A stretch of 40,497 nt of DNA from a virus, in IMG/VR virus record IMGVR_UViG_3300012964_000022, positions 1 to 40,497 of that record; one strand, 5' to 3'. This document shows positions 20,937 to 37,217 of this stretch, one piece after another; position 1 is the stretch's first letter; every line of letters starts with the position of its first letter. Made by a program: the position numbers and the translations under genes. The notes below the pieces were generated by a model. The model was not told where the DNA came from. It saw nothing but the letters and a program-made list of their open reading frames with translations, and searched no databases.

Positions 20937-23022
20937 GTGCCTTCATGATTAACCTGCAAACGCAAGTCGGGTGAAACGGAGGCACGTCGTTGAATGTGCC
21001 AAAATCTTCCGGCGTCTTCACTGCTTTGTCCATCCGTTCCTGCATTCCTCTCGCCGCGATAACCATCCCGTGCAGCGGTTGGCAGATCTCGCAGGCCCTC
21101 TCCCCCCGGGTCACATAGACCTGCATATCAACCCCCGCCTGGACCCCCTGCCGCAGGTCCGCGTAGGACCGCATCCGGCTGACAGACGTGTCCAGGATCC
21201 TCCGGATCTGCCAATCCTCCACCCCCTCCAGCTGCCCCGCGAATTGCGACCGGAAGGCGGTGATCCCCTCGGCGCTTCCCCTGCCGAAAAGCCCCTCGCC
21301 TTTTTCCAGGTACTGCTCCTTCAAGAACTTCATCACCGGGCCCTGCATGTCCTGGTTCTCGATATACTTGGAAAGATAGACCGTATCAATCCTGCCCATC
21401 GCCTGCAGCGCAGCCCGGTCCACGGCGTCGAAGGACATGGCTACCGGGGCCTCGGCCCCGGCCCACGCACTCTTGTCGGTCACCCTGTAGTAGCTGTAGA
21501 TCGGCTCCATCGCCCGCTCCACCACCGGGACCAGGTCTTCGGCCGATGCCCCGTAATGCTTCCGGAGGATCGCCCGGATCTTCTCCCCGAATTCTTCCTG
21601 CCCCATGCCCGCGCTGGCCAGGAGAGCTCCCTGGATTTCATCCAGGGCCTTGCCGCGGATCGCGCCGAAGGAATTTTTCACCTCCCGCATATACTGCCCC
21701 ACCAGCTTCTGCCGCGCCGCCTCCATCCCCGCTTCCTGCTCCGGACTCATCTCAATAAAATGTAGGGCCCGATCCCCGATCGGGCCGGATCTCCGCCGCC
21801 CGGCATCGGAAAACCCTAACGGCCCGGGCATCGCCGCCGGCGGCGTCACCAGCTCCTCCCCCTCTTCCGGCTGCGGCAGGTTGTATGTCTCATAAAAATA
21901 TTTCTTGGACACCGGGACTCCGATCTCCCGAATCAGGATCTTATCGCGCTCGGCCAGGGCCTTGAGATCTTTTTCCGGCTCGGTCCGGACCCAGACCTGG
22001 GGATATTTCTTCTGCGGCCCGAAATTGTAATCCACGAGCCAGCTCACCACCGTTTTATTCAGGCAGGCGCAGAGAGCGTCCGCGTCGGCTTTAACGATCC
22101 CCTGCTCCGCCTCCTCATGCGTCGCGGCTGCGGAATAGGCCCCGCCGGTCTTGCCGATCTCCGTGGTTAGCGTGCCACCCAGGACGGTCTTGCTGATCTC
22201 CGCGTTCATGAAATTGCAGAGCGACTCGTAGGTATTGACCGAACTCGTGCGCGCCGCCTCCAGGAGATCAATGGCCATCGTCTCCGGAATGATCACCCCG
22301 GTCTCCTGATGGATCGCCTCGATCGCCTCCAGCAGTTTGTCCTGGTCGGTCTTCTCCGCGCCCGGCGGGTATTTGCCCACCGCCGTGGGCCCGCCGAATT
22401 TCTCCGCGAACATCACCCAGAACTTGATCCCGTTCTTTTTGAACCAGATCGGCCACCATAACCGGCGCCCCAGGCCCTCGCCATAGGGATTATCCGCCGA
22501 GCCGTAAGTGTAGATGATGAACTTGCGCTCCGGCACCGTTTCCCCTTCGATCATGGCCGCGGGGGTCAAAAGGCGCAGCTCGCGCTCCATGTTGAAGACG
22601 AAGCGATATTGTTTCTTGTCCAGGAGCTTGTCGATCCAGATATCCCCTTCGGAGATTTGCCACATGACCTCGCTGACGGCGAATCCATAGAGCACCGAAC
22701 TCAGCAGCTTTTCCCGGCCCAGGTCGTAGTTGCAGGAAAGGAAGACCTCCTTCACAAAATCGCCGATCTCCACGTCCCTGGCCCGTTCCGAAGCTGGGAC
22801 CACGTCCCATTCCTTGCCCACTACCGACCGGTAGCGTTTTTCCAGGACCCCGCCGGCGTGGGAATCGCGGGCGATCTCATCGTAGAGTTTGATTCCCTTG
22901 CCCGCGGCTTCGGTCCGGAGCACCGGATCGGGGTTCTCCAGGCGCCCCAACCATCCGCCGAAGAGCTCAACGTCCTTGCTCGTGGTGGCGATCTCATTCA
23001 CTTCGGGTTTTTTATTTTTCAT
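20926..23022 (-). CDS. Portal protein (DUF935, Mu gp29) fused to MuF-type head protein (gp30)
   Basis: The product has 698 residues. Residues ~1-410 are the Mu gp29/DUF935 portal (PDPVLRTEAAGKG, IYDEIARDSHAGGVL-like start). Residues ~425-698 are a MuF head morphogenesis domain, with RRILDTSVSRMRSYADLRQG and the metal-site end CEICQPLHG...HPTCVCRL. In Mu these are separate genes. The seam at residues ~415-425 (SGPIGDRALHF) is encoded by a palindromic element. An ATG directly after the seam (21750) has no good ribosome site. The start at 23022 is formed by a 9-bp repeat. The portal is the DNA gate; MuF proteins act in head assembly or are ejected. Confidence 0.85.
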   Translation of the reverse strand: MKNKKPEVNEIATTSKDVELFGGWLGRLENPDPVLRTEAAGKGIKLYDEIARDSHAGGVLEKRYRSVVGKEWDVVPASERARDVEIGDFVKEVFLSCNYDLGREKLLSSVLYGFAVSEVMWQISEGDIWIDKLLDKKQYRFVFNMERELRLLTPAAMIEGETVPERKFIIYTYGSADNPYGEGLGRRLWWPIWFKKNGIKFWVMFAEKFGGPTAVGKYPPGAEKTDQDKLLEAIEAIHQETGVIIPETMAIDLLEAARTSSVNTYESLCNFMNAEISKTVLGGTLTTEIGKTGGAYSAAATHEEAEQGIVKADADALCACLNKTVVSWLVDYNFGPQKKYPQVWVRTEPEKDLKALAERDKILIREIGVPVSKKYFYETYNLPQPEEGEELVTPPAAMPGPLGFSDAGRRRSGPIGDRALHFIEMSPEQEAGMEAARQKLVGQYMREVKNSFGAIRGKALDEIQGALLASAGMGQEEFGEKIRAILRKHYGASAEDLVPVVERAMEPIYSYYRVTDKSAWAGAEAPVAMSFDAVDRAALQAMGRIDTVYLSKYIENQDMQGPVMKFLKEQYLEKGEGLFGRGSAEGITAFRSQFAGQLEGVEDWQIRRILDTSVSRMRSYADLRQGVQAGVDMQVYVTRGERACEICQPLHGMVIAARGMQERMDKAVKTPEDFGTFNDVPPFHPTCVCRLIMKAQDE
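21762..21786. repeat. Oriented palindromic element inside portal-MuF
   Basis: TGTAGGG prefix, arms GGCCCGATC (21766-21774) and GATCGGGCC (21778-21786), loop CCC. It is translated as SGPIGDRALH, exactly between the portal and MuF domains, and keeps the frame. Confidence 0.86.
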
Positions 23023-23060
23023 AGGTCCTATGCGTCATATCGGTCCTATATGACCTATTA
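23020..23060. repeat. 9-bp tandem repeat filling the terminase-portal junction
   Basis: On the coding strand AGGTCATAT, AGGACCGAT, ATGACGCAT and AGGACCTAT follow the terminase stop TAA directly and end in the ATG of the portal gene. No other sequence lies between the two genes. Confidence 0.82.
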
Positions 23061-24566
23061 ACAGAATGCTCCCATCTCCGTGTATGCCCGCTTCACGCCA
23101 GTCCCCCTGAACTCGATCTTCCCCGCCGGCCTGCTCGCGGCCTGCGCGGCCAGGGCCTTGGCCCAGAAGTGATCGGCATGGCCCGTCTCCTCGGTCTTGT
23201 CCGCGTCGAAGCGGAAGTGCCCGGTCGCGGTCTCATACTTTTTCACGCTGTGCAGCGAATTGCGGATCGCGTTGGAGATGGGGATCCGGCTCTGCAGGTC
23301 CTCGAAATTCTTCTTCAGCCCCGTGGCCATCGCCTCTTTGCTGGCCACGGTGAAGTCGATCCCCTCGACCTTGTGCTCGCCGAATTTCTCGACGGCCTCC
23401 TCGGCCATCTGCATGCCCAGCCCGGTCTGGTCGATGCACGCCCGCCTCACGCCCGGGTGCCCGAGCAGCCGGAAGAGGATCCGCTTCTGCACGAAGAAAG
23501 GCTGCTTCAAAAGCTCGATCACCGCCCGGCCCCATGCCACCCCGTCCTTCGCCTCGTCCACCCAGATCACCGACAGGTCCCGCCTCCGCCCCACGTCAAA
23601 ACCTATATAAATGTTTTGTAGGGGCGATTCGGGAATCGCCCCTACGGTTGGAGGAGGTAGAGGAGGTTCTGAGGAGGTGCGACGGAATATCTTGTAAGCC
23701 TCTTTCGCTTCATCCACGGTCTCCGCGGCCCAGCCCGGCAATGCTTCGCACTGTTCGCTCTCCACCTGGGTGATCAGGTCATAGGTGAGGAAAGCCGTGG
23801 CCTCGTCCAGGAACTCCACCTCGTATTCCTGGGCCCATCCTTCTTCATCCCCGAACCCCTTCTTCAGCTCCTCCACCGTCGTGGGTTTCCCGCTTTCATC
23901 GCGCAGGACCAGCCCTTCCTTGATCGCCAGCTGGATGGGGACCACGTGCTTGGAGTAGCCGTTGTCCGCCGTGCAGAGTTCGTAGAACTTGTTCTTCTTG
24001 CCGAAGGGCGTAGAGATGATCCGGATCTTGAACCCCCTGGTGATAGTGGGATAGAGGGCCCGCCAGATGGCCCGGCTGTCCTTGTGCAGCGCGAACTCGT
24101 CCAGGAGGATATTCGCCGACCAGCCCCGGGCCGTGTCCGGATTGGCCGGCAGTCCGATGATCCGCGAGCCGTTGGGGAAGACGATCTCCAGCATTTTGTA
24201 CTCGGCGTCGCCTTCACCTTTGAAGGTTCCCTCGATCTCCTCCACCGCCACGTCGATCGCTTTGGCATGGACTTTGCTTTGGGCGATCAGTTCCTTGGAC
24301 TGCCTCTCCCCGCGGGACAGGCAGACCCACTTGGTCACCCGTTCGTAACAGTCGAACACGGCCTCCAGCGTGGCCCCGAAAGTCTTCCCCCCTTGCCGGG
24401 TGATCCGCCCGATCTTGAATCGCGATTTATCCTCGACCCACCGTTTTTGATAAAGGGTCAAAGGGATCACGGGCGATTGCGGATCCGGGGTTTTGCCTTT
24501 TGCCGAATCTGCGTAACCTGCGAAATGTGCGGATCTATTTTTCGGCCGTGCCGCCCGTGATGCCAT
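23058..24566 (-). CDS. Terminase large subunit (Mu gp28-like)
   Basis: The product has 502 residues. The ATPase has a Walker A-like ITRQGGKT (55-62) and Walker B ILLDEF (153-158). The nuclease half begins near residue 319 with IYIGFDVGRRRDLS, carrying the first acidic metal ligand. Two repeat-derived segments are present: residues ~11-27 (AHFAGYADSAKGKTPDP) and residues ~307-317 (TVGAIPESPLQ), the latter between ATPase and nuclease. The start lies within the gp27-like gene. The enzyme packages DNA and, in Mu-type phages, cuts in host DNA beyond the phage end. Confidence 0.9.
   Translation of the reverse strand: MASRAARPKNRSAHFAGYADSAKGKTPDPQSPVIPLTLYQKRWVEDKSRFKIGRITRQGGKTFGATLEAVFDCYERVTKWVCLSRGERQSKELIAQSKVHAKAIDVAVEEIEGTFKGEGDAEYKMLEIVFPNGSRIIGLPANPDTARGWSANILLDEFALHKDSRAIWRALYPTITRGFKIRIISTPFGKKNKFYELCTADNGYSKHVVPIQLAIKEGLVLRDESGKPTTVEELKKGFGDEEGWAQEYEVEFLDEATAFLTYDLITQVESEQCEALPGWAAETVDEAKEAYKIFRRTSSEPPLPPPTVGAIPESPLQNIYIGFDVGRRRDLSVIWVDEAKDGVAWGRAVIELLKQPFFVQKRILFRLLGHPGVRRACIDQTGLGMQMAEEAVEKFGEHKVEGIDFTVASKEAMATGLKKNFEDLQSRIPISNAIRNSLHSVKKYETATGHFRFDADKTEETGHADHFWAKALAAQAASRPAGKIEFRGTGVKRAYTEMGAFC
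23617..23645. repeat. Oriented palindromic element inside the terminase gene
   Basis: Perfect 13-bp arms GTAGGGGCGATTC (23618-23630) and GAATCGCCCCTAC (23633-23645), loop GG. In frame it reads VGAIPESPLQ in the linker between ATPase and nuclease domains. Confidence 0.92.
24500..24533. repeat. Simple repeat of TCTGCGTAAC type in the terminase N-terminus
   Basis: Units such as aatctgcgtaacctgcgaaat begin directly after the gp27 stop and are translated as part of the first 27 terminase residues. Related arrays lie at 31758-31798 and 33259-33292. Confidence 0.75.
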
Positions 24567-25074
24567 AGATCTCTTCCTTGATCATCTTCATGGCCTCGGG
24601 GCTGAGCCCCCGGGCCTTCCCTTTCTCCTCGATGTTCTTCACCGCCTGCCGCGCTTTTTCCCTGACCTCGCGCGCCCATTTCTTCTGGGTGACCGCGGCG
24701 CGGTTCAGCCGGGCGATCATGATTCCCATCTTGGAGACGTCCACCGTTTTCGGGTCCGGGGCCTCCATCTCCACCAGGACCTTGAAGGCCCTCTCCTGGC
24801 AGAGGCGCGTTAGCGCGTCGCCCATGACCCCTTCCTCGTCCCCCACCGCCTCGGTGATCGCCCGCGCCTGCTCGGTGGCGATTTTGATGGCGGATAACTT
24901 CTCCTCGAATTCCTTCCCGTATCTATGCGCGGCCGAGCGGGAGATCTCGTACCCCTGCTCCTTCAGCCAGGCCGCCAGCCCGTCATAATCGGCGAACCCG
25001 CCGGCGATCAGCTTCTTCTCGAACGCCTCCCGGATATCCTTCGGCAAGAGGCAGATTTTAGACCGCGCCGGCAT
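24535..25074 (-). CDS. Mu gp27-like small terminase candidate (DUF3486)
   Basis: The product has 179 residues. I choose the ATG at 25074, which overlaps the previous stop as TGATG with AAGGAG upstream, over two GTG codons just before it. ARSKICLLPKDIREAFEKKL and the later SRSAAHRYGKEFE (helix-turn-helix region) fit DUF3486, found directly before gp28 in Mu-like phages. It probably recognises the phage end for packaging. Confidence 0.85.
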   Translation of the reverse strand: MPARSKICLLPKDIREAFEKKLIAGGFADYDGLAAWLKEQGYEISRSAAHRYGKEFEEKLSAIKIATEQARAITEAVGDEEGVMGDALTRLCQERAFKVLVEMEAPDPKTVDVSKMGIMIARLNRAAVTQKKWAREVREKARQAVKNIEEKGKARGLSPEAMKMIKEEIYGITGGTAEK

Positions 25075-25385
25075 CACCACTCCTTGGGGCGGGCGATCCC
25101 GGGCTGGCAGTCCACCGTGTACTCCACGATGTCCACCCCGTTCCGGTTGATCTTAGCGAACCAGACCGGCCTATTGCGTTCCGAAATGGTCACCAGGTCC
25201 CGCTCCGCCAGGTAGTCTAGCTCCCTGCGCAGCTCGGTGATGGTGAGGTCGGGGATGCACGGGTCGATGGCGTTGCGGATGATCGCCTCTGAGGCCCCCA
25301 CCGGTTGCGCGGCATAAAGAGAGCGCAGGATCATCCATCGCAGTTCCTCCCTCCGCGCCTTGGCCAGGTCCATTTTGCCGCTCAT
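25074..25385 (-). CDS. Winged-helix phage protein of the Mu gp26 position
   Basis: The product has 103 residues. ARREELRWMILRSLYAAQP and the pattern ELRRELDYLAERDLVTI show a small winged helix. The family (called VpaChn25_0724 in some databases) is common immediately before gp27 in transposable phages. ATGA overlap with the previous gene and TGATG with the next indicate a tightly coupled packaging operon. Confidence 0.75.
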   Translation of the reverse strand: MSGKMDLAKARREELRWMILRSLYAAQPVGASEAIIRNAIDPCIPDLTITELRRELDYLAERDLVTISERNRPVWFAKINRNGVDIVEYTVDCQPGIARPKEW

Positions 25386-25717
25386 TCCTCCGTCTCCTTT
25401 TGCTTGCCGGCGGCCGATATCAGCCTGCCCAGGCGGTCCAGCTTGGTCAGGATCGTCACCTCATGGCGGATGAAGTCCTCCCGCCGCACGTAGCAAAGTG
25501 GCAGATCCGCCTTCATCTCCAGGACCTCGCGCTCCAGGGTCTGCTGCTTTTCCCGCTGGGTCTCCATCTTATTCGTGAGCTCCCCGAATTTCTCCGACAT
25601 TCCTTTCAGCCCCGAGCTGATCGTCCAGCGGGCCGTGGCGATGATCACCAGCGACCAGGCCGCGATCAACCCGAGCAGCCATCCGAAATGATCCCACGTC
25701 AGGCACTGCCCTTCCAT
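25382..25717 (-). CDS. Membrane-anchored coiled-coil protein (DUF2730, Mu gp25-like)
   Basis: The product has 111 residues. One membrane helix at ~12-30 (GWLLGLIAAWSLVIIATA) is followed by a coiled coil at ~38-75 (EKFGELTNKMETQREKQQ). GGGGGAGCG precedes the ATG. This matches DUF2730 of Mu-like phages. Its topology would also suit an inner-membrane spanin, but it lies between lysis and packaging genes. Confidence 0.75.
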   Translation of the reverse strand: MEGQCLTWDHFGWLLGLIAAWSLVIIATARWTISSGLKGMSEKFGELTNKMETQREKQQTLEREVLEMKADLPLCYVRREDFIRHEVTILTKLDRLGRLISAAGKQKETEE

Positions 25718-25735
25718 CGCTCCCCCAGGGTTCGC

Positions 25736-26209
25736 TCAAATCTTCAGCCCGCTCGCGCCTACTACGCGCGAGATGATTTTCTCCATCTTCTCCCGGCCGG
25801 TCTCCGGATCCACCGGCCCGGCAAAGCGCCCGGAAGGTTCTCCCGTCTTGATGTATTCCTCGTCGAAATACCATTGCGTGCAGAGCGGGCCATCATAGGA
25901 AACCGCGAAGGCCAGGAGGTAATAATCATGGCCGTTGGGCTCTTTCTTGCGGACGTAGGCAAAGGACATGACGGTCATGTTCTCTTTGACGTCCGCGCGC
26001 ACCGCCCAGAAATCCCCATTGGGCAACTCCTCCGCCGCAATGATTTCTTCTTTCCATTCCGCGCCCAGAAAATCAGGCGCTTTTTCGGGGACGGTGATCT
26101 TGTAAGTCCCGCGGGGGCTGACTAGGCGCTTCTCTTTTTCCGGCTCAGCTCCCCAGCCCCATGCGCAGGCCAGAAGCAGCGCGATCGCCAGGATAAAGAT
26201 TCTCTTCAT
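25736..26209 (-). CDS. Exported protein of unknown function
   Basis: The product has 157 residues with a signal peptide (KRIFILAIALLLACAWGWG); a cysteine at residue 15 could also be a weak lipobox. The mature part has a compact mixed alpha/beta pattern (GTYKITVPEKAPDFLGAEWK, YYLLAFAVSYDG). It lies in the lysis cluster. It may be a lysogen-expressed periplasmic protein rather than a lysis factor; no family is recognised. Confidence 0.6.
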   Translation of the reverse strand: MKRIFILAIALLLACAWGWGAEPEKEKRLVSPRGTYKITVPEKAPDFLGAEWKEEIIAAEELPNGDFWAVRADVKENMTVMSFAYVRKKEPNGHDYYLLAFAVSYDGPLCTQWYFDEEYIKTGEPSGRFAGPVDPETGREKMEKIISRVVGASGLKI

Positions 26210-26235
26210 GACTCGATCCTTGTCTTTCCTTTTTT

Positions 26236-26261
26236 GTAGGGGCGAGTTTCAAACCCGCCCC
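26236..26261. repeat. Oriented palindromic element, GTTT type (intergenic)
   Basis: TGTAGGGGCGAGTTTC followed by AAACCCGCCCC. Arms pair apart from one internal mismatch. It sits in the 87-base gap between the exported protein and the holin candidate; nothing else is visible there. Confidence 0.8.
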
Positions 26262-26296
26262 ATTAAAACCCCGTTCTCAACGCCGCCGATCTGCGG

Positions 26297-26650
26297 CTAT
26301 CCTGTCGGGGGTTTAGTCAGCTTTTTGATCAGGTCATAGAGCAGAGTGGCCACGCCGGAGACGTAGCCGACGTTCACAGTGGTGTCGACATACCCGGTCC
26401 CCGGCGAGGGTCCCACGTTCAAGAGCGCGGCGAGCCCGCCCAGGAGGAGTACGACGACGGGCGCGTACTTACTCTGGATCCATTTCTTTAGGACCTGGGT
26501 CAACCCGATCACGACCAGGGGCGCCAGATACCCGATGATCGCCGCGAAATCAAGAGGCTGCCCCGACGCAGGCTCGGCAGCCAGAAGGCTCCCCGGAAAA
26601 AAGGCGATCGTTACGAAGATCATCGCCAATAGCATAAAAATCATCTTCAT
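26297..26650 (-). CDS. Holin candidate, three hydrophobic segments
   Basis: The product has 117 residues from the ATG at 26650 behind AAGGAGGAAAAC. Hydrophobic segments lie at ~1-23, ~35-52 and ~62-80, and a basic tail (LIKKLTKPP) closes the chain. Size, topology and position beside the transglycosylase suit a phage holin. The first segment might be a cleaved signal. Confidence 0.62.
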   Translation of the reverse strand: MKMIFMLLAMIFVTIAFFPGSLLAAEPASGQPLDFAAIIGYLAPLVVIGLTQVLKKWIQSKYAPVVVLLLGGLAALLNVGPSPGTGYVDTTVNVGYVSGVATLLYDLIKKLTKPPTG

Positions 26651-26675
26651 GTTTTCCTCCTTTTTTTGCTGACAA

Positions 26676-26708
26676 GATTGATCATTGCCCATTGATCATT
26701 GGTTATTG
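26676..26708. repeat. Simple repeat of TGATCATTG type at a gene end
   Basis: Two exact copies of attgatcatt and a partial third include the stop codon of the next small gene. Confidence 0.7.
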
Positions 26709-26885
26709 TTTTTTCAGCGGGTCTTTCGGCCTCGATGCCTCCATCACTGTTATCAGGGCCTCGAAATCCTTGGCCGTCGGATCGACTTTTTGCCAGGCCG
26801 CGGAGACGTCGTTGATAATCTGCGGCCCCTCCTGGGCGATCCTCCCGATCAGCAAGAGTGAAGCGAATATTGCGGTGGGGTCCAT
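26703..26885 (-). CDS. Small protein of the lysis cluster
   Basis: The product has 60 residues from the ATG at 26885, with AAGGAGG upstream. A short hydrophobic helix (AIFASLLLIGRIAQ) is followed by an amphipathic helical part. Its final codons and stop lie in a TGATCATTG repeat. It may be a holin partner; no family is known to me. Confidence 0.58.
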   Translation of the reverse strand: MDPTAIFASLLLIGRIAQEGPQIINDVSAAWQKVDPTAKDFEALITVMEASRPKDPLKKQ

Positions 26886-26899
26886 CTCTTCATCCTCCT

Positions 26900-26926
26900 T
26901 GTAAGGGCGATTCATGGATCGCCCTT
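26900..26926. repeat. Oriented palindromic element, GATTC type (intergenic)
   Basis: TGTAAGGGCGATTC with arms AAGGGCGAT (26903-26911) and ATCGCCCTT (26918-26926). Next to it, at 26938-26963, stands another simple repeat, caactcccaactctcaactc. Confidence 0.8.
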
Positions 26927-26965
26927 TTGTTCATTTCCCAACTCCCAACTCTCAACTCCCATCCA

Positions 26966-27379
26966 TCAAAACAGCGGCTTCTGCTGTTCCTTCGGAATCT
27001 TCTTTTGGTAATATTCCGTCAGCTCTGCCAGCGCCTTCTGCAAGGCTTTCTGGACAAGCTCCACCGCGGACTGCGGCTTCTCCCCTCTCTTGTATTCCGC
27101 CATCGCCTTCGACAAAGCCTGGTGCTCATCCACGAACTTATTCCCGATCTTTTCATACTCCGCCCACCCCGCGTCCGAGATCAGCCCCGTTGCCCGCATC
27201 TCTGTGAAGGTCCCGTTGATCATCTTGTACGTGGTGGCCGAAGTGGATAGGGATCGGTACGCCGAATAGGCAAAAGGATCCTCCGGCGCCTTCTGCGGCA
27301 GCCCGCACCCCCAGGCGAAAGCCAGAATCCCGATGATCGCGATGGCGATCATGCTTTTAAATCCGCAATTTCTTTTCAT
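26966..27379 (-). CDS. Lipoprotein of the lysis cluster
   Basis: The product has 137 residues from the ATG at 27379 behind AGGAGGGGAAG. The N-terminus has a signal with a lipobox ending FAWGC at about residue 22. The rest is helical (ALSKAMAEYKRGEKPQSAVE, KALQKALAELTEYYQKK). It could be an outer-membrane spanin subunit by position and class, although spanins of this kind are usually shorter. Confidence 0.62.
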   Translation of the reverse strand: MKRNCGFKSMIAIAIIGILAFAWGCGLPQKAPEDPFAYSAYRSLSTSATTYKMINGTFTEMRATGLISDAGWAEYEKIGNKFVDEHQALSKAMAEYKRGEKPQSAVELVQKALQKALAELTEYYQKKIPKEQQKPLF

Positions 27380-28289: not shown

Positions 28290-28322
28290 ATTCCGCATTC
28301 CGCATTCCGCATTCCGCATTCG
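28290..28322. repeat. 7-bp tandem repeat (ATTCCGC)n
   Basis: Four to five exact units lie between the HTH gene and the GemA stop codon. A related array is translated inside the transposase gene (34750-34783). Confidence 0.85.
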
Positions 28323-28323
28323 A

Positions 28324-28731
28324 TTAATTCCATCTTACTTCCCGGTCCCGCATCGCCTTCAGCCCCTCGATCACCCGCTGCGCCGCTTTCCCGGAAAGCT
28401 CCTCCGGCTTCTCCTTCCCGGTCATCTTGCGGATGAACCCGTAAAGCCGCGCCGGCCACCACCCCAGGTCCTCCATGAGATGATAAATAACCTTCTTCTG
28501 CCCCTCGCTTGCATACTCGGGTAGGGGCGGCCCTGCGTGGCCGCCCGACCTTCGTTTTTTGAACCCGAGGGATTTGAAAACCAGGAGGACCTTCTCGAAC
28601 CCGAAATCATCCAGATGTACCGAAGACTCCGCCCCCCCATGCGCCTTCAGGATCTCCCGGTACTGTTCCTCCGAAAGCCCCAGCTGCGCCTTGGCGACAT
28701 GAATCAATTGAATTTGTTTTTTATTAATCAA
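28324..28731 (-). CDS. gemA: GemA-like protein (Mu gp16, DUF1018)
   Basis: The product has 135 residues from a TTG start at 28731. MINKKQIQLIHVAKAQLGLS at the start and WWPARLYGFIRKMTGKEKPE later fit Mu GemA/gp16, which affects host gene expression in Mu. The middle (RSGGHAGPPLPE, ~75-87) is encoded by a palindromic element inserted between the two conserved halves. The TTG directly follows a long pentamer array that supplies GAGGTAGGG as ribosome site. Confidence 0.84.
   Translation of the reverse strand: MINKKQIQLIHVAKAQLGLSEEQYREILKAHGGAESSVHLDDFGFEKVLLVFKSLGFKKRRSGGHAGPPLPEYASEGQKKVIYHLMEDLGWWPARLYGFIRKMTGKEKPEELSGKAAQRVIEGLKAMRDREVRWN
28521..28546. repeat. Oriented palindromic element inside gemA
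   Basis: GTAGGGGCGGCC, arms GGGCGGCC (28525-28532) and GGCCGCCC (28539-28546), loop CTGCGT. It is translated as SGGHAGPPL without a frame change. Confidence 0.85.
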
Positions 28732-29491: not shown

Positions 29492-29530
29492 GTTTTCCCT
29501 TTGCGCCCTTCGCGCCTTTGCGTGAGATCA
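29492..29530. repeat. Simple repeat of CTTTGCGCC..TTTGCGTGAGA type
   Basis: It lies between Gam and the following gene, and includes the Gam stop. Similar copies stand at 30823-30846 and 33228-33256, always with tttgcgtgaga at the same end. Confidence 0.75.
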
Positions 29531-30802: not shown

Positions 30803-30808
30803 TTTTTA

Positions 30809-31204
30809 CTACTCTTCCTCCGCGTCCTTTGCGTCTTTGCGTGAGATAAAATCCATCCCCATCTGCCCCACCAGCGCCGGCAGCGAGCACCCCCGCAGCC
30901 TCGACTCCACCGTCAGGCAGGCCATCGCGTAGCCGTGGTAATACCGGCAGGACCGATCCACTTCCTCCTCCGTGACCGGCGTGTAATACCCGCAGGGACC
31001 GGAGGCGATAGGGATCCCGTGCTCCATCACCAGGTGCTTGATCGCGCGCCTCACCTGCCGCTCGGAGACCCCGTCAAACAGGTCCATGAGCCTCTCCCGG
31101 GGAATGGCGTTGCCTTCACCCCGCCGCGCCCCGATCAGCTCCTTGAGATCCTTCTCCAGATCGGTCATCTGCCCGTGGTCAGGTCTTATCGACAGGTCTT
31201 CCAT
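30809..31204 (-). CDS. Winged-helix early protein with repeat-derived C-terminus
   Basis: The product has 131 residues from the ATG at 31204 behind AAAGGATACTAA. It has a helix-turn-helix (ERLMDLFDGVSERQVRRAI) and a short YYTPVTEEEVDRSCRYYHG segment. The final ISRKDAKDAEEE comes from a simple repeat (tttgcgtgaga family). It may resemble small replication or regulatory proteins of other transposable phages. Confidence 0.62.
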   Translation of the reverse strand: MEDLSIRPDHGQMTDLEKDLKELIGARRGEGNAIPRERLMDLFDGVSERQVRRAIKHLVMEHGIPIASGPCGYYTPVTEEEVDRSCRYYHGYAMACLTVESRLRGCSLPALVGQMGMDFISRKDAKDAEEE

Positions 31205-31553
31205 TTAGTATCCTTTCCGCCTCGCTGATCAAATACTTGTCCGCTATCTGCCGCCGAAATCTGAAAACCAATCGCCAGAGATTCCAGATCTGCCTCTCGG
31301 TCGCATGCGTCATGTCACAAACCTGCAGGGCAAATCGCTTATCCGACGTACCCGGAAGAAATCTGCACCTGGAAAGCTGCTCGGCTGCATATTTCTCCCG
31401 CGGGCTCATTTCCCGCCGAGAAAGCGGAAGTTCCTTTTTCCGAAAAATGGGCCCGTTTGCGGGAAGCTGAAATCTTTGGCAAGGGCAGAGGGGGGCCAGG
31501 CATCCTCCCGCGATCTGATGCTCTTTCATCGTACGCCCGCACCTGCAGCTCAT
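31179..31553 (-). CDS. Zinc-site protein with conserved Trp/Arg-rich C-terminus
   Basis: The product has 124 residues. MSCRCGRTMKEH and CLAPLCPCQRF give a probable Cys cluster. The C-terminal EKYAAEQLSRCRFLPG...QIWNLWRLVFRFRRQIAD is a pattern I have seen in early genes of other phages, where the N-terminal part is often absent. Coupled by ATGA to the small gene before it. Role unknown. Confidence 0.62.
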   Translation of the reverse strand: MSCRCGRTMKEHQIAGGCLAPLCPCQRFQLPANGPIFRKKELPLSRREMSPREKYAAEQLSRCRFLPGTSDKRFALQVCDMTHATERQIWNLWRLVFRFRRQIADKYLISEAERILNGRPVDKT

Positions 31554-31717
31554 TTTTCCTTCTTTACCCCCAATAGAAATCTCTTCGCGCCCTTGCTCCG
31601 GGCCAATATTCTGAACACCCTCGAAGGTATTGCCATCCCTGGCTTCATGTCCTTCTTCATCAACTCCCGCGCGATCGTCTTCTTCGTCGGCGCCTGATTG
31701 ACCATCATTCTCCCCAT
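31550..31717 (-). CDS. Small basic protein
   Basis: The product has 55 residues (MGRMMVNQAPTKKTIARELM...), very rich in Lys and Arg. It ends in an ATGA overlap with the next gene and lies two bases after the preceding one. GGGGAGGATCGG stands upstream. A nucleic-acid-binding role is plausible. Confidence 0.65.
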   Translation of the reverse strand: MGRMMVNQAPTKKTIARELMKKDMKPGMAIPSRVFRILARSKGAKRFLLGVKKEK

Positions 31718-31718
31718 A

Positions 31719-32240
31719 TTATCCGATCCTCCCCAGCAGGTCCTTCACCTTGCCCGGCAGGTCTTGAATCTGCGAAATCTGCGTAATCTGCGGATCCCCA
31801 GTTTTTAGACTTTTTTCTTTTGTTCGTAAATTTTTTTCTTCCTGCCGCGATCTCTCTGTGGATTCGCCCTCCGCGATCCCGATGGCCACCTTCTTCAAAT
31901 AATTATGGTTCTGTAGGGGCGACCCCCCGGGTCGCCCGCTCCTTAATTGATTGCATACGGTCCGCATGGCCTGGACCAGGCCTTCCCGGGAGATCTCGTA
32001 CCGCCTCTTCTGGAAATCGAACGCCTGCGCGATGAATATCTCCCGCACCTCGGCGAGCACCCGGTAAAGTTTCCGCGCGTTCAGCGGCGGTCGGATCCCG
32101 AAGAGCTCCGCATATTCCCAGGCCAACCGCGAGTGCGGCCCGAAATCGGGCAGCATCCTGATCACCTGCACCATGATCGAGTCTTTCAAGTAAGCCTCCA
32201 GGTCGAATTCCGCCTCGCAATACGGGCAGCGGACTTTCAA
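31719..32240 (-). CDS. Zinc-finger early protein carrying two repeat insertions
   Basis: The product has 173 residues from a TTG at 32240 overlapping the previous TGA. It starts with a CPYC half-finger (KVRCPYCEAEFDLEAYLKD), then a helical core (LAWEYAELFGIRPPLNARKL). After residue ~100 comes RSGRPGGSPLQN, encoded by a palindromic element, and near residue 150 GDPQITQISQIQD, encoded by a tandem repeat. The CPYC plus helical-core layout appears in phages near replication genes. Role not known. Confidence 0.65.
   Translation of the reverse strand: MKVRCPYCEAEFDLEAYLKDSIMVQVIRMLPDFGPHSRLAWEYAELFGIRPPLNARKLYRVLAEVREIFIAQAFDFQKRRYEISREGLVQAMRTVCNQLRSGRPGGSPLQNHNYLKKVAIGIAEGESTERSRQEEKNLRTKEKSLKTGDPQITQISQIQDLPGKVKDLLGRIG
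31758..31798. repeat. Simple repeat of AATCTGCGTAATCTGCG type, translated
   Basis: Units tgaatctgcgaaatctgcg and taatctgcgga lie inside the zinc-finger gene and read DPQITQISQIQ in frame. Confidence 0.78.
31913..31937. repeat. Oriented palindromic element inside the zinc-finger gene
   Basis: TGTAGGGGCGACCC, arms GGGCGACCC (31917-31925) and GGGTCGCCC (31929-31937), loop CCC. It reads SGRPGGSPLQ without breaking the frame. Confidence 0.88.
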
Positions 32241-32401
32241 TTAAACACCCCGATCCGCAGCATTCTCACCCTATACCGAATGATCGGCCCAGTTTGCAGA
32301 TAGGCCGCCTGATTCTTTCTCTCCGCCCGCTCCTTCCAGAGCGCATGCAACCCCGCGCCCCACGCCGCTCCCACGACCAACCCCACCAGAAATAGGATCA
32401 T
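32237..32401 (-). CDS. Small membrane protein
   Basis: The product has 54 residues from the ATG at 32401, chosen for AAAGGAGAGGCGGC. A membrane helix (ILFLVGLVVGAAWGAGLHAL) is followed by a basic tail. An alternative ATG at 32446 overlaps the preceding stop. Role unknown. Confidence 0.62.
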   Translation of the reverse strand: MILFLVGLVVGAAWGAGLHALWKERAERKNQAAYLQTGPIIRYRVRMLRIGVFN

Positions 32402-32442
32402 GCCGCCTCTCCTTTCGTCTTTGCCTCCAACCTCAAACCGCT

Positions 32443-32637
32443 TCATTTCGCCCGCGTCATCGACAGCGCGATAACCCGCCTCTCAGGATCGAGATCCACC
32501 ATGCCACTGGGCCGATTCCCGTTCAACCCGTCCTTAAAATCTTCCCCGCGGGATGCCATCGCCAATATGCACATTGCCATCACTCCAATGATGGCCCCCC
32601 CGAAGCCTGCCGCCAGAATCCAGTACCAAGCAACCAT
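32443..32637 (-). CDS. Small membrane protein
   Basis: The product has 64 residues with one N-terminal membrane helix (WYWILAAGFGGAIIGVMAMC) and a soluble tail. AAGGGGGGAGGA precedes the ATG at 32637. Several such single-helix peptides occur in the early region of this phage. Confidence 0.62.
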   Translation of the reverse strand: MVAWYWILAAGFGGAIIGVMAMCILAMASRGEDFKDGLNGNRPSGMVDLDPERRVIALSMTRAK

Positions 32638-32652
32638 TCCTCCCCCCTTTCT

Positions 32653-32690
32653 TTCATTCGAAATTCAAAATTCGAAATTAAAAATTTACA
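32653..32690. repeat. Simple repeat of GAAATTC type
   Basis: Units attcgaaattcaaaattcg and gaaattaaaaattt surround the stop of the SANT-like gene. A closely related array is translated in the MuB-like gene (34170-34193). Confidence 0.75.
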
Positions 32691-33054
32691 ATCTAAATCG
32701 GTGCCCCGCCACACACACCAGGTCAAACTCCCCCGGCGCGATGTACCCGTATCCTGACGGCACCATCTCCTTCCGCAGAAGATTCCCGCATCCCCGCCCG
32801 ATCCCCGGGCAGCGCATCGATTCCAGCAAGTCCGTCCGCGCCGGCGCCTCCCGGAACTTCCTCCCGGCTTTTGCTTTCTTCCTCCCGTTCGTAAGCCCCA
32901 GCCGGTAGGCCCGGTAATGAACCGCCCTCAGCGTCCTGCCCGTGGCTTCGACCAGTTTTCCCGGTCCGCCGTATTCCCGGTAGAGATCCCGGACCATCTC
33001 GTCTTCCCCCGGTGTCCATCGCCCGAAACAATCCTGCGGCCGCATTCCTTTCAT
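32686..33054 (-). CDS. Myb/SANT-like DNA-binding protein with Cys motif
   Basis: The product has 122 residues from the ATG at 33054 behind GGAGGCCGG. GRWTPGEDEMVRDLYREYGG and LRAVHYRAYRLGLTN form a SANT/Myb-like helix set common in phage regulators. A Cys/His part (RCPGIGRGCGN ... CVAGHRF) follows and may bind zinc. Confidence 0.65.
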   Translation of the reverse strand: MKGMRPQDCFGRWTPGEDEMVRDLYREYGGPGKLVEATGRTLRAVHYRAYRLGLTNGRKKAKAGRKFREAPARTDLLESMRCPGIGRGCGNLLRKEMVPSGYGYIAPGEFDLVCVAGHRFRL

Positions 33055-33223
33055 ATCCGGCCTCCTTGGTATGCCCGGCATTTATCATCGCCAGCAGTTC
33101 GCTCTCGATCCGCGCCTCCTCCAATGGAACGCATGGATCGCAAAGCCCATGAGACAGTCTCTTGTCCTCAAGGGGTTCCTTCTCCCCGTAAATCCTCCCG
33201 CACCGGTAACAGAACTTGATCAT
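32723..33223 (-). CDS. Zinc-ribbon protein, reading frame runs over the next gene
   Basis: The first ~57 residues look real: IKFCYRCGRIYGEKEPLEDK and LCDPCVPLEEARIESELL hold two CxxC motifs. After that no stop occurs and the frame overlaps the SANT-like gene for about 330 bases, with shadow-like composition (Gly/Arg/Glu-rich). Either a stop has been lost by mutation or a small indel, or the long form is made. I trust only the N-terminal part. Confidence 0.5.
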   Translation of the reverse strand: MIKFCYRCGRIYGEKEPLEDKRLSHGLCDPCVPLEEARIESELLAMINAGHTKEAGYERNAAAGLFRAMDTGGRRDGPGSLPGIRRTGKTGRSHGQDAEGGSLPGLPAGAYEREEESKSREEVPGGAGADGLAGIDALPGDRAGMRESSAEGDGAVRIRVHRAGGV

Positions 33224-33227
33224 TTTC

Positions 33228-33292
33228 CCTTTGCGCCCTTTGCGCCTTTGCGTGAGAATATCTGCGTAAATCTGCGTAATCTGTGGATCAGA
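33228..33292. repeat. Two simple repeats in tandem before the MuB stop
   Basis: ctttgcgccctttgcgcc with tttgcgtgaga is followed by atctgcgtaaatctgcgtaat. They fill the gap between the zinc-ribbon gene and the MuB-like gene. Confidence 0.78.
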
Positions 33293-34463
33293 TCTCGAAC
33301 TGATTCATTACGTCTGCCACATGGTCCTTCGTCACCGTGAGAGACCCGTCCCGGTACGCCAGTTTCATCGCCCGCATGGCGACGTTGTTCGCCGCCTGCG
33401 GCTGCGGCGCCTTCTTCACCAGCATCTTCAGCGCGTCGTCGGAAAAGATCTTCCTCACTTTCCCGCCCGTGCGCGAAAACCTCCAGTCCAGGTAATCCGC
33501 CATGCTCCCGTTCATGCTCCCCAGGTCCACAAGGTAGCACCGCTCCGCGAATTCCCTGAGAGCGTTGTGGAAAAGGAGCGCGCCCTTCAGCCCCCATGCG
33601 CCCCGGCTGTCCTCTCCCCCCTGGCCGAGAATGATCACGCTCAACAGTTTGAAGATCATCCCCGAATCCCACAGCCGTTTGAGCCCGATGATCGCCTCCG
33701 GCCGGAGATCGTGCGCCTCGTCGATCACCAGCACCGGGTCGGACCCGGCCCTCACGCTCTCTTCCAGCATCCGCTTGGCGAGCTTGTCGCGCTCCACCGC
33801 GAACCTGGGGACCTTCGTGCAGTCCATCTGGGAGATCACCGCCTGGGTAATGTTCGACCCGCAGAGCCTCTCCCGGTCGATGGCGTCGGGCATGATCAGC
33901 CTCACCGACCGGTCCTTCATCATCCGGCCCAGGATGTGCCGCAGCAGGGTCGATTTCCCCGAGCCTACCTCGCCCACGACGGCCATGATCCCGTGCCGCT
34001 TGATCGTCTCCCAGAACTTCCGCTCCACCACCTTGAGCTGGGGCGACTTGTAGATATCCTGGTAATCCTCCAGGTCGAAGAAAGGATCCCCCTCCAAGTG
34101 AAAGTGCCGCAGTTCCTCCTCGGTCAGATACTCCTTCGTGAAATTCATCTCCGCCTTCACCTCCTTTTTTTCGAAATTCGAAATTCGAAATTTGCGCGGC
34201 TGCTTGCCGCGCGTGGGTTCCGGTTCCACCTGCCAGATCCCCGCACAGGCGACCTTGCGCGCGCGCAGGAAGGCCTCCACTTTTTCCTTGAAATCCTCGA
34301 TGGACGGGGGCAGGTATCCGCGCTCGCAGCAGACATTGATCAGCGGGCGGGAGAGCTTTAATTCCCGGGCCAGATCCGCCTGGCATATCCCTGCCTGGCG
34401 CAGCCTCTCTTTCAGCCGGATGGCCCGGCTCTTCATGCTCCAGACTTTAGCCTCGTGCCTCAC
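33288..34463 (-). CDS. MuB-like AAA+ ATPase, target-DNA activator
   Basis: The product has 391 residues from a GTG at 34463 behind AAGGAGGTGAGAG. Residues ~12-68 are an HTH (LRQAGICQADLARELKLSRP). The AAA+ domain has Walker A GEVGSGKS (164-171) and Walker B VLVIDEAH (244-251). Between them, residues ~90-100 (RKFRISNFEKK) are encoded by a GAAATTC repeat. An internal ATG at 34148 with AAAGGAGG upstream might give a form without the HTH. MuB-type proteins bind target DNA, activate the transposase and give target immunity. Confidence 0.88.
   Translation of the reverse strand: MRHEAKVWSMKSRAIRLKERLRQAGICQADLARELKLSRPLINVCCERGYLPPSIEDFKEKVEAFLRARKVACAGIWQVEPEPTRGKQPRKFRISNFEKKEVKAEMNFTKEYLTEEELRHFHLEGDPFFDLEDYQDIYKSPQLKVVERKFWETIKRHGIMAVVGEVGSGKSTLLRHILGRMMKDRSVRLIMPDAIDRERLCGSNITQAVISQMDCTKVPRFAVERDKLAKRMLEESVRAGSDPVLVIDEAHDLRPEAIIGLKRLWDSGMIFKLLSVIILGQGGEDSRGAWGLKGALLFHNALREFAERCYLVDLGSMNGSMADYLDWRFSRTGGKVRKIFSDDALKMLVKKAPQPQAANNVAMRAMKLAYRDGSLTVTKDHVADVMNQFEI
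34170..34193. repeat. Simple repeat of GAAATTC type inside the MuB-like gene
   Basis: Three copies of cgaaatt in tandem, translated as FRISNFE in the linker between HTH and ATPase domains. Confidence 0.8.
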
Positions 34464-34485
34464 CTCTCACCTCCTTTGCCGTTGA

Positions 34486-36249
34486 TCACTGATTACTGGT
34501 CACTGTTCTCTGCCTGGCCGCCGCCTCCTTCGCCGGCGTCTCTTCTGTGTAGGGCGCGTTCCCCGAACGCGCCGCTTGCTCCTCTTTCATGCCCAGGTGT
34601 TTCCGCATGGCCGCCACCGCTTTCTCAATGCCATCCTCGTTCATTTCCTCGGAAAGGTACCGCTCCAAAAGCTGCGCCTGCACCGGCGTCAGCCGGCTCA
34701 AATTCAATTTCTCGCGGATGATTTTCCGGGCCTCGTAAGCGCTGTATTTCAATTCCGCATTCCGAATTCCGCATTCCGCATTCGTCAGGGCCGGCACTCC
34801 CGGCCGCGCCAGGTAATGTAGCCCCTCCACCTTGCCCCGCTGCGGCTGCGGCTTGATCTGCGAGATATCGATCTTCTTTGCCTCCACGTCGGCGATGAAC
34901 CGCTGGGTCTGATCGTAGGCGTGGCTTTTGTAGGACTGCCCGATCACCGCCGCGTCTTCCCGGAATCCCAACTTGTTCGTCATCACCGGCGCCGTCGCAT
35001 AGGTTCTGCCCGCTTCGTCCTCTACCTGGAACTGCCGGGGGTTGTAAAAGTCCGGGGTGATCTTCATCCGCATCCCCCTGCGGACCGGGCCCCGCACCTC
35101 GTAGACCGTCCCGTCGATCCGGATCTGCTTGGCCCCGTCCACCACCGCCGCGAATTCCTTACCGCTGATCAGCCTCCGGCAGATCTCCGGCGCCGGGAGG
35201 TACCGCAACTGCTCCCGGGTGATCGCCTGCCAGGCGCTGAACCTGGGCACCCCGGTCCGCCTGTGCTTGTGGATGGCGTTGAATTTCATGACGTAGTCGT
35301 AGGCCCGGGCGTTGAGATGCTCGATGTCCGGCGCCTTTTCCAGGGAGAGCTCGCTCTCGAAGGCGTGCTCCCAGGTGAGATGCGCGTTCTCCACCTGCCC
35401 GCAAGCCCTGGGATTTCCCGGTTCGTGGACGATCAGGTCCACTTTCAGATTCTTGACCAGCGTCCGGAAAGGGGCGGAGATATTCGCCGATCCCGCGTCG
35501 CACATGAGGATCCGCGGCACGCCGTGGAAGGGAAAAAGCTCCGGGTCGGCCTTCACCGCCCAGGCCCGCAGGACGAAGTCCACCAGGGTCCGCGTGTCCT
35601 CGCCGCGGACATAATAATAATAAGGATAGATCGTCCCCGAGGCGTGGTCGGTCAGCAGGTAGCGCAGCAGGATTTTCTTGATCTCCTTGAAGTACTGCGG
35701 CTTGTTCTTGTAGAAGGCCAGCTTCATGTCCCGGTCCACCATCTCCCACCGGGTCCCCTTGTCCTTGAAGTCGTACTGCACGCAGACCGAGGGGTCCATC
35801 TGGTGGACGTGGTTGGGATGGAGGGAGGCCAGATTGACGTGGGCCGTGGGGGAAAGCAGAGAGGACTGATTGAGCCCCATCTCCCGGAAGTAGCGGTTGA
35901 GCGTGCTGTCGCTCACCGTCCCCGGGGGGATCAGATTGTTGTCCTCCATCACCTCCCTGATCTTCCAGGTGGGCATGATGATCCGCTCGGTCTTCCGCTT
36001 GCTCTTGTAGGACAGGGCCGCCGCGGTCTCGATCTGCTCGGGGGCGAGTTTTTTCCGGCCTTTGTCGGCCCGCGCCTTGCTGAATCCCTCGAAGCCGAAC
36101 TCCCTGGCCACTCGGTAGACCGTGCCCCTGGACCAGCCCATCATCTCTACGTACTCCTGGACGATCCGGGCCTTATCCCCATTGGTCGAAAAGGCCAGCC
36201 GCCGCGCGATTTCCTCCCCCACTTGGGGGTCCACCAGGCCGGGGGTCAT
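34486..36249 (-). CDS. MuA-type DDE transposase
   Basis: The product has 587 residues. The catalytic triad is visible as D152 (VHQMDPSV), D251 (RILMCDAGSAN) and E287 (GQVENAH), with an HTH near 39-53 (WSRGTVYRVAREFGF). The target-interacting C-terminal region is altered by repeats: NAECGIRNAEL (7-bp array), ARSGNAPYTE (palindromic element) and the end TVTSNQ (a gatcactg repeat), which even gives the stop. It carries out phage integration and replicative transposition. ATGA overlap with the DUF3102 gene. Confidence 0.92.
   Translation of the reverse strand: MTPGLVDPQVGEEIARRLAFSTNGDKARIVQEYVEMMGWSRGTVYRVAREFGFEGFSKARADKGRKKLAPEQIETAAALSYKSKRKTERIIMPTWKIREVMEDNNLIPPGTVSDSTLNRYFREMGLNQSSLLSPTAHVNLASLHPNHVHQMDPSVCVQYDFKDKGTRWEMVDRDMKLAFYKNKPQYFKEIKKILLRYLLTDHASGTIYPYYYYVRGEDTRTLVDFVLRAWAVKADPELFPFHGVPRILMCDAGSANISAPFRTLVKNLKVDLIVHEPGNPRACGQVENAHLTWEHAFESELSLEKAPDIEHLNARAYDYVMKFNAIHKHRRTGVPRFSAWQAITREQLRYLPAPEICRRLISGKEFAAVVDGAKQIRIDGTVYEVRGPVRRGMRMKITPDFYNPRQFQVEDEAGRTYATAPVMTNKLGFREDAAVIGQSYKSHAYDQTQRFIADVEAKKIDISQIKPQPQRGKVEGLHYLARPGVPALTNAECGIRNAELKYSAYEARKIIREKLNLSRLTPVQAQLLERYLSEEMNEDGIEKAVAAMRKHLGMKEEQAARSGNAPYTEETPAKEAAARQRTVTSNQ
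34549..34573. repeat. Oriented palindromic element inside the transposase gene
   Basis: TGTAGGGCGCGTTC with arms GGCGCGTTC (34553-34561) and GAACGCGCC (34565-34573), loop CCC. It reads RSGNAPYTE near the C-terminus. Confidence 0.86.
34750..34783. repeat. 7-bp tandem repeat (ATTCCGC-type), translated in the transposase
   Basis: Imperfect units of attccgc/attccga code for NAECGIRNAEL. The same family is intergenic at 28290-28322. Confidence 0.82.
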
Positions 36250-37217
36250 GACGGCATCCCTTCCCCTGATGTGCTTTCATCCTGTAGGGGCTGCCCTCCT
36301 GCCGTGGCGGGACCACCCGTTTTCCCTGCATACACCTGAGGGTATTTCCGAATGACCTTCTTTTCTTGGTCATTGACTTCCACGGGGGTGGTGCGCTGGC
36401 TCTCCATGCGGTTGTACTGATTGTCCTTGCGCAGGAAGAGCAGCTTCGACAGATCGTGCATGTACTCGCAGAGGATCAAAAATTCGGTCAGGAATCGGTC
36501 CGATGCCCTGCTCAGGTCGGCCGTGTCCATCCGGTACCAGAGGGAGTTGAAGGCCATCTTCATGGCCGTCAACTTCTCGAACTCCTTCTCCTCCTCCAGC
36601 CCCAGACCCAGCTGCAGCCCGTAGATCTGATTCTGCAGATCGATGATCTTCTCGTCTTTCCTCTGGAGCTTCTCCTCCCAGGTCTTCTTCCGGTCCCGGT
36701 GCCCCCGCACCAGGTCCCGGAGATCCTTCACGGACATCTGGTCCACTTCGTCCTGGGGCTTACCCAGGAGGGTCCCGGATTCCTGAAAAAGCTTTAAATC
36801 TTCGTCAGGTACATCCAAAAGGGCGTATAATTTCCCGATCCCTTGCTTCAGGCTTTTGATGGCCAAATCATTCACGCGTGAATGATTTGATAGCTTTCGG
36901 CTGATGGCCATCATCCGCCAGGCCGTGGGCTGGCTGATCCCCAAATCGTCATTGACTATCCGGGTGAATTCTCCGTGCCCTTCCTTTTCCTTCATCCAGA
37001 TCAGCCGCTTGCCAGCCTCGAAGATGCTCATGGCGGTCTCGGTTAGATAGAACTTTGTCTCCCCGATCACCCGCGTTTTGTCATACGGCTGCCCGTCGGA
37101 ATAAAGCGTCAGCTCCTCCTCCCGCTTCTTCAACGCCACCCGGCGGTCCACCTCCGCGTGGATCTTCGCCGCCTCTTCCTTAGTCATGACCTTCTTTTCT
37201 TTCTTCTTCCGTCCCAC
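36246..37217 (-). CDS. DUF3102-like protein preceding the transposase
   Basis: The product has 323 residues from a GTG at 37217 behind GGAGGTGAAAG. The segment KFYLTETAMSIFEAGKRLIW with GEFTRIVNDDLGISQPTAWR fits DUF3102, a domain of plasmid- and phage-borne DNA-associated proteins. A coiled coil follows near 175-215. The C-terminus holds GGPATAGGQPLQD, read from a degenerate palindromic element. Possible partner of the transposase or a regulator. Confidence 0.72.
   Translation of the reverse strand: MGRKKKEKKVMTKEEAAKIHAEVDRRVALKKREEELTLYSDGQPYDKTRVIGETKFYLTETAMSIFEAGKRLIWMKEKEGHGEFTRIVNDDLGISQPTAWRMMAISRKLSNHSRVNDLAIKSLKQGIGKLYALLDVPDEDLKLFQESGTLLGKPQDEVDQMSVKDLRDLVRGHRDRKKTWEEKLQRKDEKIIDLQNQIYGLQLGLGLEEEKEFEKLTAMKMAFNSLWYRMDTADLSRASDRFLTEFLILCEYMHDLSKLLFLRKDNQYNRMESQRTTPVEVNDQEKKVIRKYPQVYAGKTGGPATAGGQPLQDESTSGEGMPS
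36283..36312. repeat. Degenerate palindromic element inside the DUF3102 gene
   Basis: It starts TGTAGGGGCTGCCC like the others, but the second arm (cctgccgtggcggg) pairs poorly. It is translated as GPATAGGQPLQ in the same frame as the terminase copy. Confidence 0.62.

What the first reader, a model, noticed from the sequence alone, without database searches (positions are those of the whole stretch)
21762..36312. Palindromic elements are inserted in frame in at least six phage genes, mostly in one reading frame
The terminase, portal-MuF, gemA, zinc-finger, transposase and DUF3102 genes all carry an element without loss of frame. In five of the six the end of the element is read in the same frame (CC CTA C, giving P/A-L-Q/P/H, for example SPLQN, QPLQD, PPLPE). 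They lie in linkers or C-terminal tails. This resembles the Rickettsia palindromic elements that add peptides to unrelated proteins, but here it happens in an essential viral gene set.
Basis: partly seen in the sequence, partly recalled or inferred. Interest (0 to 1): 0.9.

Follow-up and report, generated by a model that had tools for sequence, protein, structure and literature searches.

The report
Host REP palindromes inside phage genes
A Mu-like phage carries short bacterial palindromes (GTAG-type REP elements) in frame in the flexible linkers and tails of at least five of its genes, and in sister phages the same linkers hold unrelated palindromes, so selfish host DNA repeatedly rewrites viral protein linkers; the elements are of a known kind but I found no earlier description of them inside phage genes.

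Summary
Nine distinct GTAG-tagged hairpins lie in the window (about 0.1 expected by chance). Five sit in frame inside genes: portal-MuF, terminase, gemA, zinc-finger and transposase. The sixth (DUF3102) is not a recognisable hairpin. The claim of one preferred reading frame fails: 5 of 6 has p about 0.05, and among in-gene copies in other loci (nearly all phage contigs) all usable frames occur. The elements are GTAG REPs. The transposase copy is letter-identical to a chromosomal family in bacterial genome G151, where such REPs flank a RAYT-type transposase on both sides. They are not clean 8-13 residue insertions: net gains run from +2 to +15 residues, and existing linker sequence is usually replaced. 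The strongest result lies outside the window. In sister phages the terminase linker carries at least five other palindromes, and terminases 96-97% identical carry unrelated ones. One 60-bp palindrome sits in the terminase linker of one phage and the portal-MuF junction of another. AlphaFold2 gives pLDDT below 50 at both sites. Best explanation: host REPs, probably moved by RAYT (inferred), land across the phage genome and persist where the protein tolerates them. Intragenic REPs are known in bacteria; phage genes with fast turnover are a new variant.

The parts
21762..21786 (+). GTAG REP (GTAGGGCCCGATCCCCGATCGGGCC) inside the portal-MuF gene, residues 413-421, antisense to the gene
   Evidence: between Portal_Mu (45-382) and Phage_Mu_F (602-692); pLDDT <50 at 392-425
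23618..23645 (.). full-palindrome GTAG REP (GTAG...CTAC, 28 bp) inside the terminase gene, residues 308-317
   Evidence: between Terminase_6N (57-265) and Terminase_6C (321-473); pLDDT <50 at 307-314
28521..28546 (+). GTAG REP inside gemA, residues 62-71
   Evidence: variable linker in GemA relatives
31913..31937 (+). GTAG REP inside the zinc-finger-like (phrog_2161) gene, residues 102-110; net +5 aa against two relatives
34549..34573 (+). GTAG REP (GTAGGGCGCGTTCCCCGAACGCGCC) in the C-terminal tail of the transposase; letter-identical to the chromosomal REP family of genome G151
36284..36312 (+). degenerate or chance GTAGGGGC in the C-terminal tail of the DUF3102 gene; not a recognisable hairpin
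26236..26260 (+). intergenic GTAG REP
37249..37272 (+). intergenic GTAG REP
37430..37453 (+). intergenic GTAG REP
37874..37898 (+). GTAG REP, probably upstream of the IclR-type HTH gene (the relative's homology starts at residue 82)
12172..12196 (+). degenerate REP (ATAG tag) between genes; body identical to the 21762 copy
17404..17425 (+). untagged hairpin GGGGCGGCC-CTCC-GGCCGCCCC between genes, possibly a decayed REP
26902..26926 (+). degenerate REP (GTAAGGGCGATTCATGGATCGCCC) between genes
24505..24535 (-). in-frame array of an 8-9 bp unit in the terminase N-terminus; absent from relative L261
31766..31796 (-). in-frame array of the same unit in the zinc-finger gene tail (ITQISQIQ), net +4 aa
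34753..34787 (-). in-frame 7-bp array (NAECGIRNAELK) in the transposase, net +4 aa; near-identical intergenic copy at 28291
20926..23022 (-). portal-MuF fusion gene
23058..24566 (-). terminase large subunit gene
28324..28731 (-). gemA gene
31719..32240 (-). zinc-finger-like gene (phrog_2161)
34486..36249 (-). Mu-type transposase gene (phrog_310)
36246..37217 (-). DUF3102 gene

Best explanation
The elements are GTAG-type REP sequences of the kind carried by bacterial chromosomes. They entered the genome of a Mu-like phage while it lived in a REP-bearing host, probably as single-stranded insertions by a host REP-associated tyrosine transposase (RAYT/TnpAREP). Copies that fell into folded domains or broke the frame were lost. 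Copies between genes, and copies that fell in frame into disordered linkers and tails, persisted. In this phage clade the terminase ATPase-nuclease linker and the portal-MuF junction are recurrent acceptors: different dispersed palindromes have replaced one another there quickly, so linker sequence is largely a record of past selfish insertions. The extra peptides themselves most likely do nothing specific. Shown: REP identity, the RAYT-REP pairing of the identical REP family in a bacterial genome, location in low-confidence linkers, and recurrent turnover in relatives. Inferred: insertion by RAYT, the identity of the host, and neutrality of the peptides.
For: 9 GTAG hairpins against about 0.1 expected. 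Element 34549 is letter-identical to a chromosomal family with 9 pattern matches in genome G151; pattern control 0 in 395 genomes. In G151 (L322) a Y1_Tnp gene with an HLH motif is flanked on both sides by an alternating array of these REPs. Y1_Tnp is in all 17 bacterial genomes tested and not in the window. Linker location from Pfam boundaries and AlphaFold2: pLDDT <50 at terminase 307-314 (element 308-317) and portal 392-425 (element 413-421). In relatives 7 of 13 terminase hairpins with stem >=9 fall in the 20-residue linker bin (p about 3e-7, or 6e-4 with near-identical pairs collapsed). Terminases L023, L024 and L025, 96-97% identical outside the linker, hold three unrelated palindromes there and L026 (93%) holds none. 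The 60-bp element of the L023 terminase linker is 95% identical to one in the L025 portal-MuF junction, in a different frame. Portal-MuF junction: 7 hairpins in 13.1 kb against 4 in 60.9 kb of portal domain. Four of nine window REPs are intergenic although about 89% of the window is coding (p = 0.01).
Against: The host of this phage is unknown and no close-clade prophage was found in bacterial genomes. RAYT association was shown only for the type-B family (34549, and the similar 21762), not for the GTAGGGGCGA type. No clean empty-site pair with a precise junction exists at this divergence; element gains are imprecise. The window REPs are singletons in one orientation (8 of 8 non-palindromic copies, p = 0.008), whereas bacterial REPs often form alternating arrays. 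Other palindromes in the same linkers (C6..G6, GGGACAC) are not GTAG REPs, so RAYT alone cannot explain the linker hot spots.
Confidence: 0.78

Rival explanations
1. Host REPs and other dispersed palindromes entered by recombination, template switching at hairpins or gene conversion rather than by RAYT transposition; linkers are simply where such patches are tolerated.
For: Insertions are imprecise and replace existing sequence. Palindromes that are not GTAG REPs (C6..G6, GGGACAC, CGTAACTCAG) use the same linkers. Short tandem arrays, which no RAYT moves, are also in frame.
Against: The dispersed single copies with an intact GTAG tag and the RAYT-flanked identical family fit transposition well for the GTAG copies.
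Confidence: 0.3
2. The elements are selected for function: the mRNA hairpins or the encoded peptides regulate or stabilise phage proteins.
For: The linker keeps a palindrome in most distinct close-clade sequences, the majority with strong folding z-scores.
Against: Peptide sequence is not conserved; near-identical terminases carry unrelated palindromes or none. Distant relatives have a short constant-length linker, and few of them show significant folding.
Confidence: 0.1
3. One reading: insertions favour one reading frame (CC CTA C), by target choice or peptide selection.
For: 5 of 6 counted copies share the frame.
Against: p = 0.053, or 0.14 without the unclear DUF3102 copy. In-gene copies across all fetched loci use all usable frames about equally. 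One 60-bp palindrome is in two different frames in two phages.
Confidence: 0.06
4. Chance palindromes in GC-rich coding sequence.
For: The DUF3102 element is of this kind or very degenerate.
Against: 9 tagged hairpins against 0.075 per shuffle; a letter-identical copy in a bacterial REP family.
Confidence: 0.01

Closest known systems
GTAG REP super-family with intragenic REPs (Di Nocera et al. 2013, PMC3733652)
   Same: GTAG tag, 5-13 bp stem, short loop, dispersed copies, some in frame inside genes in linkers or tails; the authors already compare them to Rickettsia palindromic elements
   Different: Described in bacterial chromosomes; 'phage' does not occur in the paper. Here they are in a phage's packaging, transposition and accessory genes, with fast turnover in sister phages
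REP-RAYT / REPtron systems and REPINs (PMC2817692, PMC8266576, PMC3116915)
   Same: The REP family identical to element 34549 flanks a Y1 transposase gene in genome G151
   Different: The phage itself carries no RAYT; its copies are singletons in one orientation, not alternating pairs
Rickettsia palindromic elements (Ogata et al. 2000, cited in PMC10969869)
   Same: Palindromes inserted in frame in unrelated proteins, giving extra peptides
   Different: RPEs are about 100-150 bp and specific to Rickettsiales; here 24-28 bp GTAG REPs in a virus
Mu-like phages such as B3 and vB_RhkS_P1
   Same: Terminase and head-gene homologues
   Different: At most 43% identical in terminase; the palindromes belong to a clade of uncultured phages

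Membership tests
GTAG REP | GTAG tetranucleotide next to a 5-13 bp stem with a short loop | tested here: met
   9 copies, stem 8-9 bp, loop 2-6 nt; three further copies degenerate or untagged
GTAG REP | multi-copy and dispersed | tested here: met
   9 in the window; 9 and 11 pattern matches in bacterial genomes G151 and G179
GTAG REP | association with a RAYT (Y1) transposase gene | tested here: met
   type B: RAYT flanked by the identical REP in G151; type A (GTAGGGGCGA): not shown
GTAG REP | mostly outside genes | tested here: inconclusive
   window 5 of 9 in genes; 17 sampled sites in G151, G179 and G332 show none clearly in a gene; intragenic copies are allowed by PMC3733652
GTAG REP | pairs or clusters in opposite orientation | tested here: not met
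   window copies are singletons, all in one orientation; not obligatory, since singletons dominate some families
Rickettsia palindromic element | about 100-150 bp element of Rickettsiales | tested here: not met
   24-28 bp; phage relatives in Nitrospirota and Deltaproteobacteria MAGs
Rickettsia palindromic element | in-frame insertion in unrelated protein genes | tested here: met
RAYT-mobilised insertion | precise insertion next to a CT dinucleotide on single-stranded DNA | not testable with these tools
   no empty-site pair at high identity; cleavage rule from PMC8266576

The most novel reading that the evidence does not exclude
In a clade of uncultured Mu-like phages, interdomain linkers of packaging proteins (terminase ATPase-nuclease linker, portal-MuF junction) are standing landing sites for many unrelated host palindromes that replace one another faster than the protein evolves, so these phages both tolerate and may carry REP elements between hosts.
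Probability: 0.6. Interest if true: 0.68.

Novelty: new variant of a known kind. Interest (0 to 1): 0.56.

Why it matters
REPs are called extragenic and studied in bacterial chromosomes. Finding them in frame in essential viral genes, with turnover visible between nearly identical terminases, offers a fast-evolving system in which to watch REP movement, and a reason why linkers of phage packaging proteins do not align. It would also make phages candidate vectors of REP families between hosts, which bears on the open question of how REPs spread.

Tried and rejected
Frame preference: rejected on the wider set. DUF3102 element as a REP: not supported. RAYT in the window: none; local tblastn of RAYT proteins from the host MAGs against all viral loci found none. 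RAYT loci of the first eight MAGs had no GTAG REPs of this type beside them. Host by terminase homology: nothing closer than 57-61% identity in bacterial genomes. Claim that the REP caused the portal-MuF fusion: rejected, relatives without the REP are fused too. Strand bias of insertion (all copies antisense in the window): not general, sense and antisense both occur in other loci. REP enrichment in phage over host (5 of 6 type-B copies of MAG G016 on the phage contig) was noted but not pursued, because MAG binning of phage contigs is unreliable. DUF3102 relatives were not found by the viral scan but are present in L098/L257.

Full report
WHAT IS THERE. The window is a 40.5-kb virus record of a Mu-like phage whose genes run almost entirely on the minus strand. 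A search for GTAG followed by a stem of at least 8 bp finds nine distinct copies; shuffled sequence gives 0.075 on average. Five lie in genes: portal-MuF 21762, terminase 23618 (a full GTAG...CTAC palindrome), gemA 28521, zinc-finger 31913 and transposase 34549. Four lie between genes (26236, 37249, 37430, 37874), and three decayed or untagged hairpins are also intergenic (12172, 17404, 26902). About 89% of the window is coding, so four of nine outside genes is more than chance would give (p = 0.01). All eight non-palindromic copies carry GTAG on the plus strand, opposite to the genes (p = 0.008); this orientation is not general in other loci.

FRAME. Over all fetched loci, non-palindromic in-gene copies in ORFs of at least 150 aa fall 37/38/28 in the three antisense frames. 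In sense orientation they fall in two frames, the third being closed by the TAG of GTAG. ORFs were called mechanically there, so this set is noisy, but restricting it to internal positions gives the same picture.

COMPARISON WITH RELATIVES. Codon alignments: zinc-finger gene +5 residues against two relatives, with conserved flanks, but the P-L of SPLQN already exists there as [AP]-L; portal +15 residues at the portal-MuF junction; gemA +2 against one relative, with the other longer than the window; transposase tail replaced, and the sister phage has a different tandem array there. The terminase linker is replaced rather than lengthened. So these are not clean 8-13 residue insertions. None of the genes shows a frameshift or stop at the element.

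RECURRENCE. This is the strongest result. In relatives of the terminase, 7 of 13 hairpins with stem of at least 9 bp fall within one 20-residue bin, the linker between the two domains (p about 3e-7, or 6e-4 after collapsing near-identical pairs). Besides the window, the linker carries: a 46-bp C6..G6 palindrome (L017, L018); GTAGGGAAGGG or GTAGGGAACGG full palindromes (L025, L028); a GGAACGG REP (L022, L076); GTAGGGGCAATTC (L061); a 60-bp GGGACAC palindrome (L023); a 38-bp CGTAACTCAG palindrome (L024); and nothing in L019, L021, L026, L027, L075 and L083. Terminases L023, L024 and L025 are 96-97% identical in amino acids outside the linker, and L026 93%, yet they hold three unrelated palindromes and none. 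The 60-bp element of the L023 terminase linker is 95% identical to one in the portal-MuF junction of L025, in another frame. That is direct evidence that one dispersed element has landed in two different viral linkers. Portal-MuF junctions carry 7 hairpins in 13.1 kb against 4 in 60.9 kb of portal domain. More distant terminases have a linker of nearly constant length, and only 3 of 69 show significant folding.

STRUCTURE. AlphaFold2 gives pLDDT below 50 at terminase residues 307-314 (element 308-317), between two confident domains, and at portal residues 392-425 (element 413-421). The portal model is poor overall (mean pLDDT 61.5), so only the terminase result is strong. Pfam boundaries agree for both.

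WHAT THE ELEMENTS ARE. A stem-and-tag pattern for the second type (as at 34549) finds matches in 9 of 395 bacterial genomes of one phylum and 2 of 396 of another, control 0. Genome G151 has nine matches, most of them letter-identical to the window copy. In G151 a Y1 transposase gene with the HLH motif is flanked on both sides by an alternating array of these REPs. That is the hallmark of REP-RAYT systems (PMC2817692, PMC8266576). The GTAGGGGCGA type was not tied to a RAYT here. Y1 transposase genes are in all 17 bacterial genomes tested and absent from the window.

MECHANISM. Host REPs, moved by a host RAYT acting on single-stranded DNA (inferred), land across the phage genome. Selection removes copies that break folded domains or frames, leaving copies between genes and in disordered linkers. 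Because non-GTAG palindromes and short tandem arrays use the same linkers, tolerance of the linker is as important as the enzyme; recombination is a live rival for those.

KNOWN AND NEW. Intragenic GTAG REPs in bacteria, in linkers and tails, were described in 2013 (PMC3733652), with the comparison to Rickettsia elements. I found no report of them in phage genes in the held library (searches; papers read). Most subscription papers are not in it. I rate this a new variant of a known kind.

LIMITS. The host is unknown. Most relatives are metagenome fragments. Independence of insertions rests on one tree and on unrelated sequences at the same place. Trimming of ends and compensatory drift in old copies could hide shared ancestry for the window and L061, which share site and frame.

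Noticed in passing
24505-24535, 31766-31796, 33268-33289: Array of an 8-9 bp unit (AATCTGCGTAATCTGCGGATC) dispersed in the window; in frame in the terminase N-terminus and in the zinc-finger gene tail.
   Followed up: partly
34753-34787 and 28290-28321: GCATTCCGCATTC array, in frame in the transposase (NAECGIRNAELK) and near-identical between genes.
   Followed up: partly
29493-29527, 33223-33257, 30812-30846: Dispersed repeat TTTGCGCCCTTTGCGCCTTTGCGTGAGA in short intergenic gaps, 97% identical between two copies.
   Followed up: no
L122 (G016:C268): In MAG G016, 5 of 6 matches to the type-B REP pattern lie on the phage contig; either binning error or REP enrichment in phage DNA.
   Followed up: partly
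L025:4964-4988: GTAG REP in frame inside the portal domain itself (FPVGNGLKPFRAKYP against FGPQKKYP), in a loop.
   Followed up: partly
20926-23022: Portal and MuF are fused in one gene here and in several relatives; others have a separate portal of about 500 aa.
   Followed up: partly
L006 and L035 portal-MuF junctions: CCCCCTTTGGCAAAGGGGG palindromes in frame (FGKGG-type peptides), another dispersed family.
   Followed up: no
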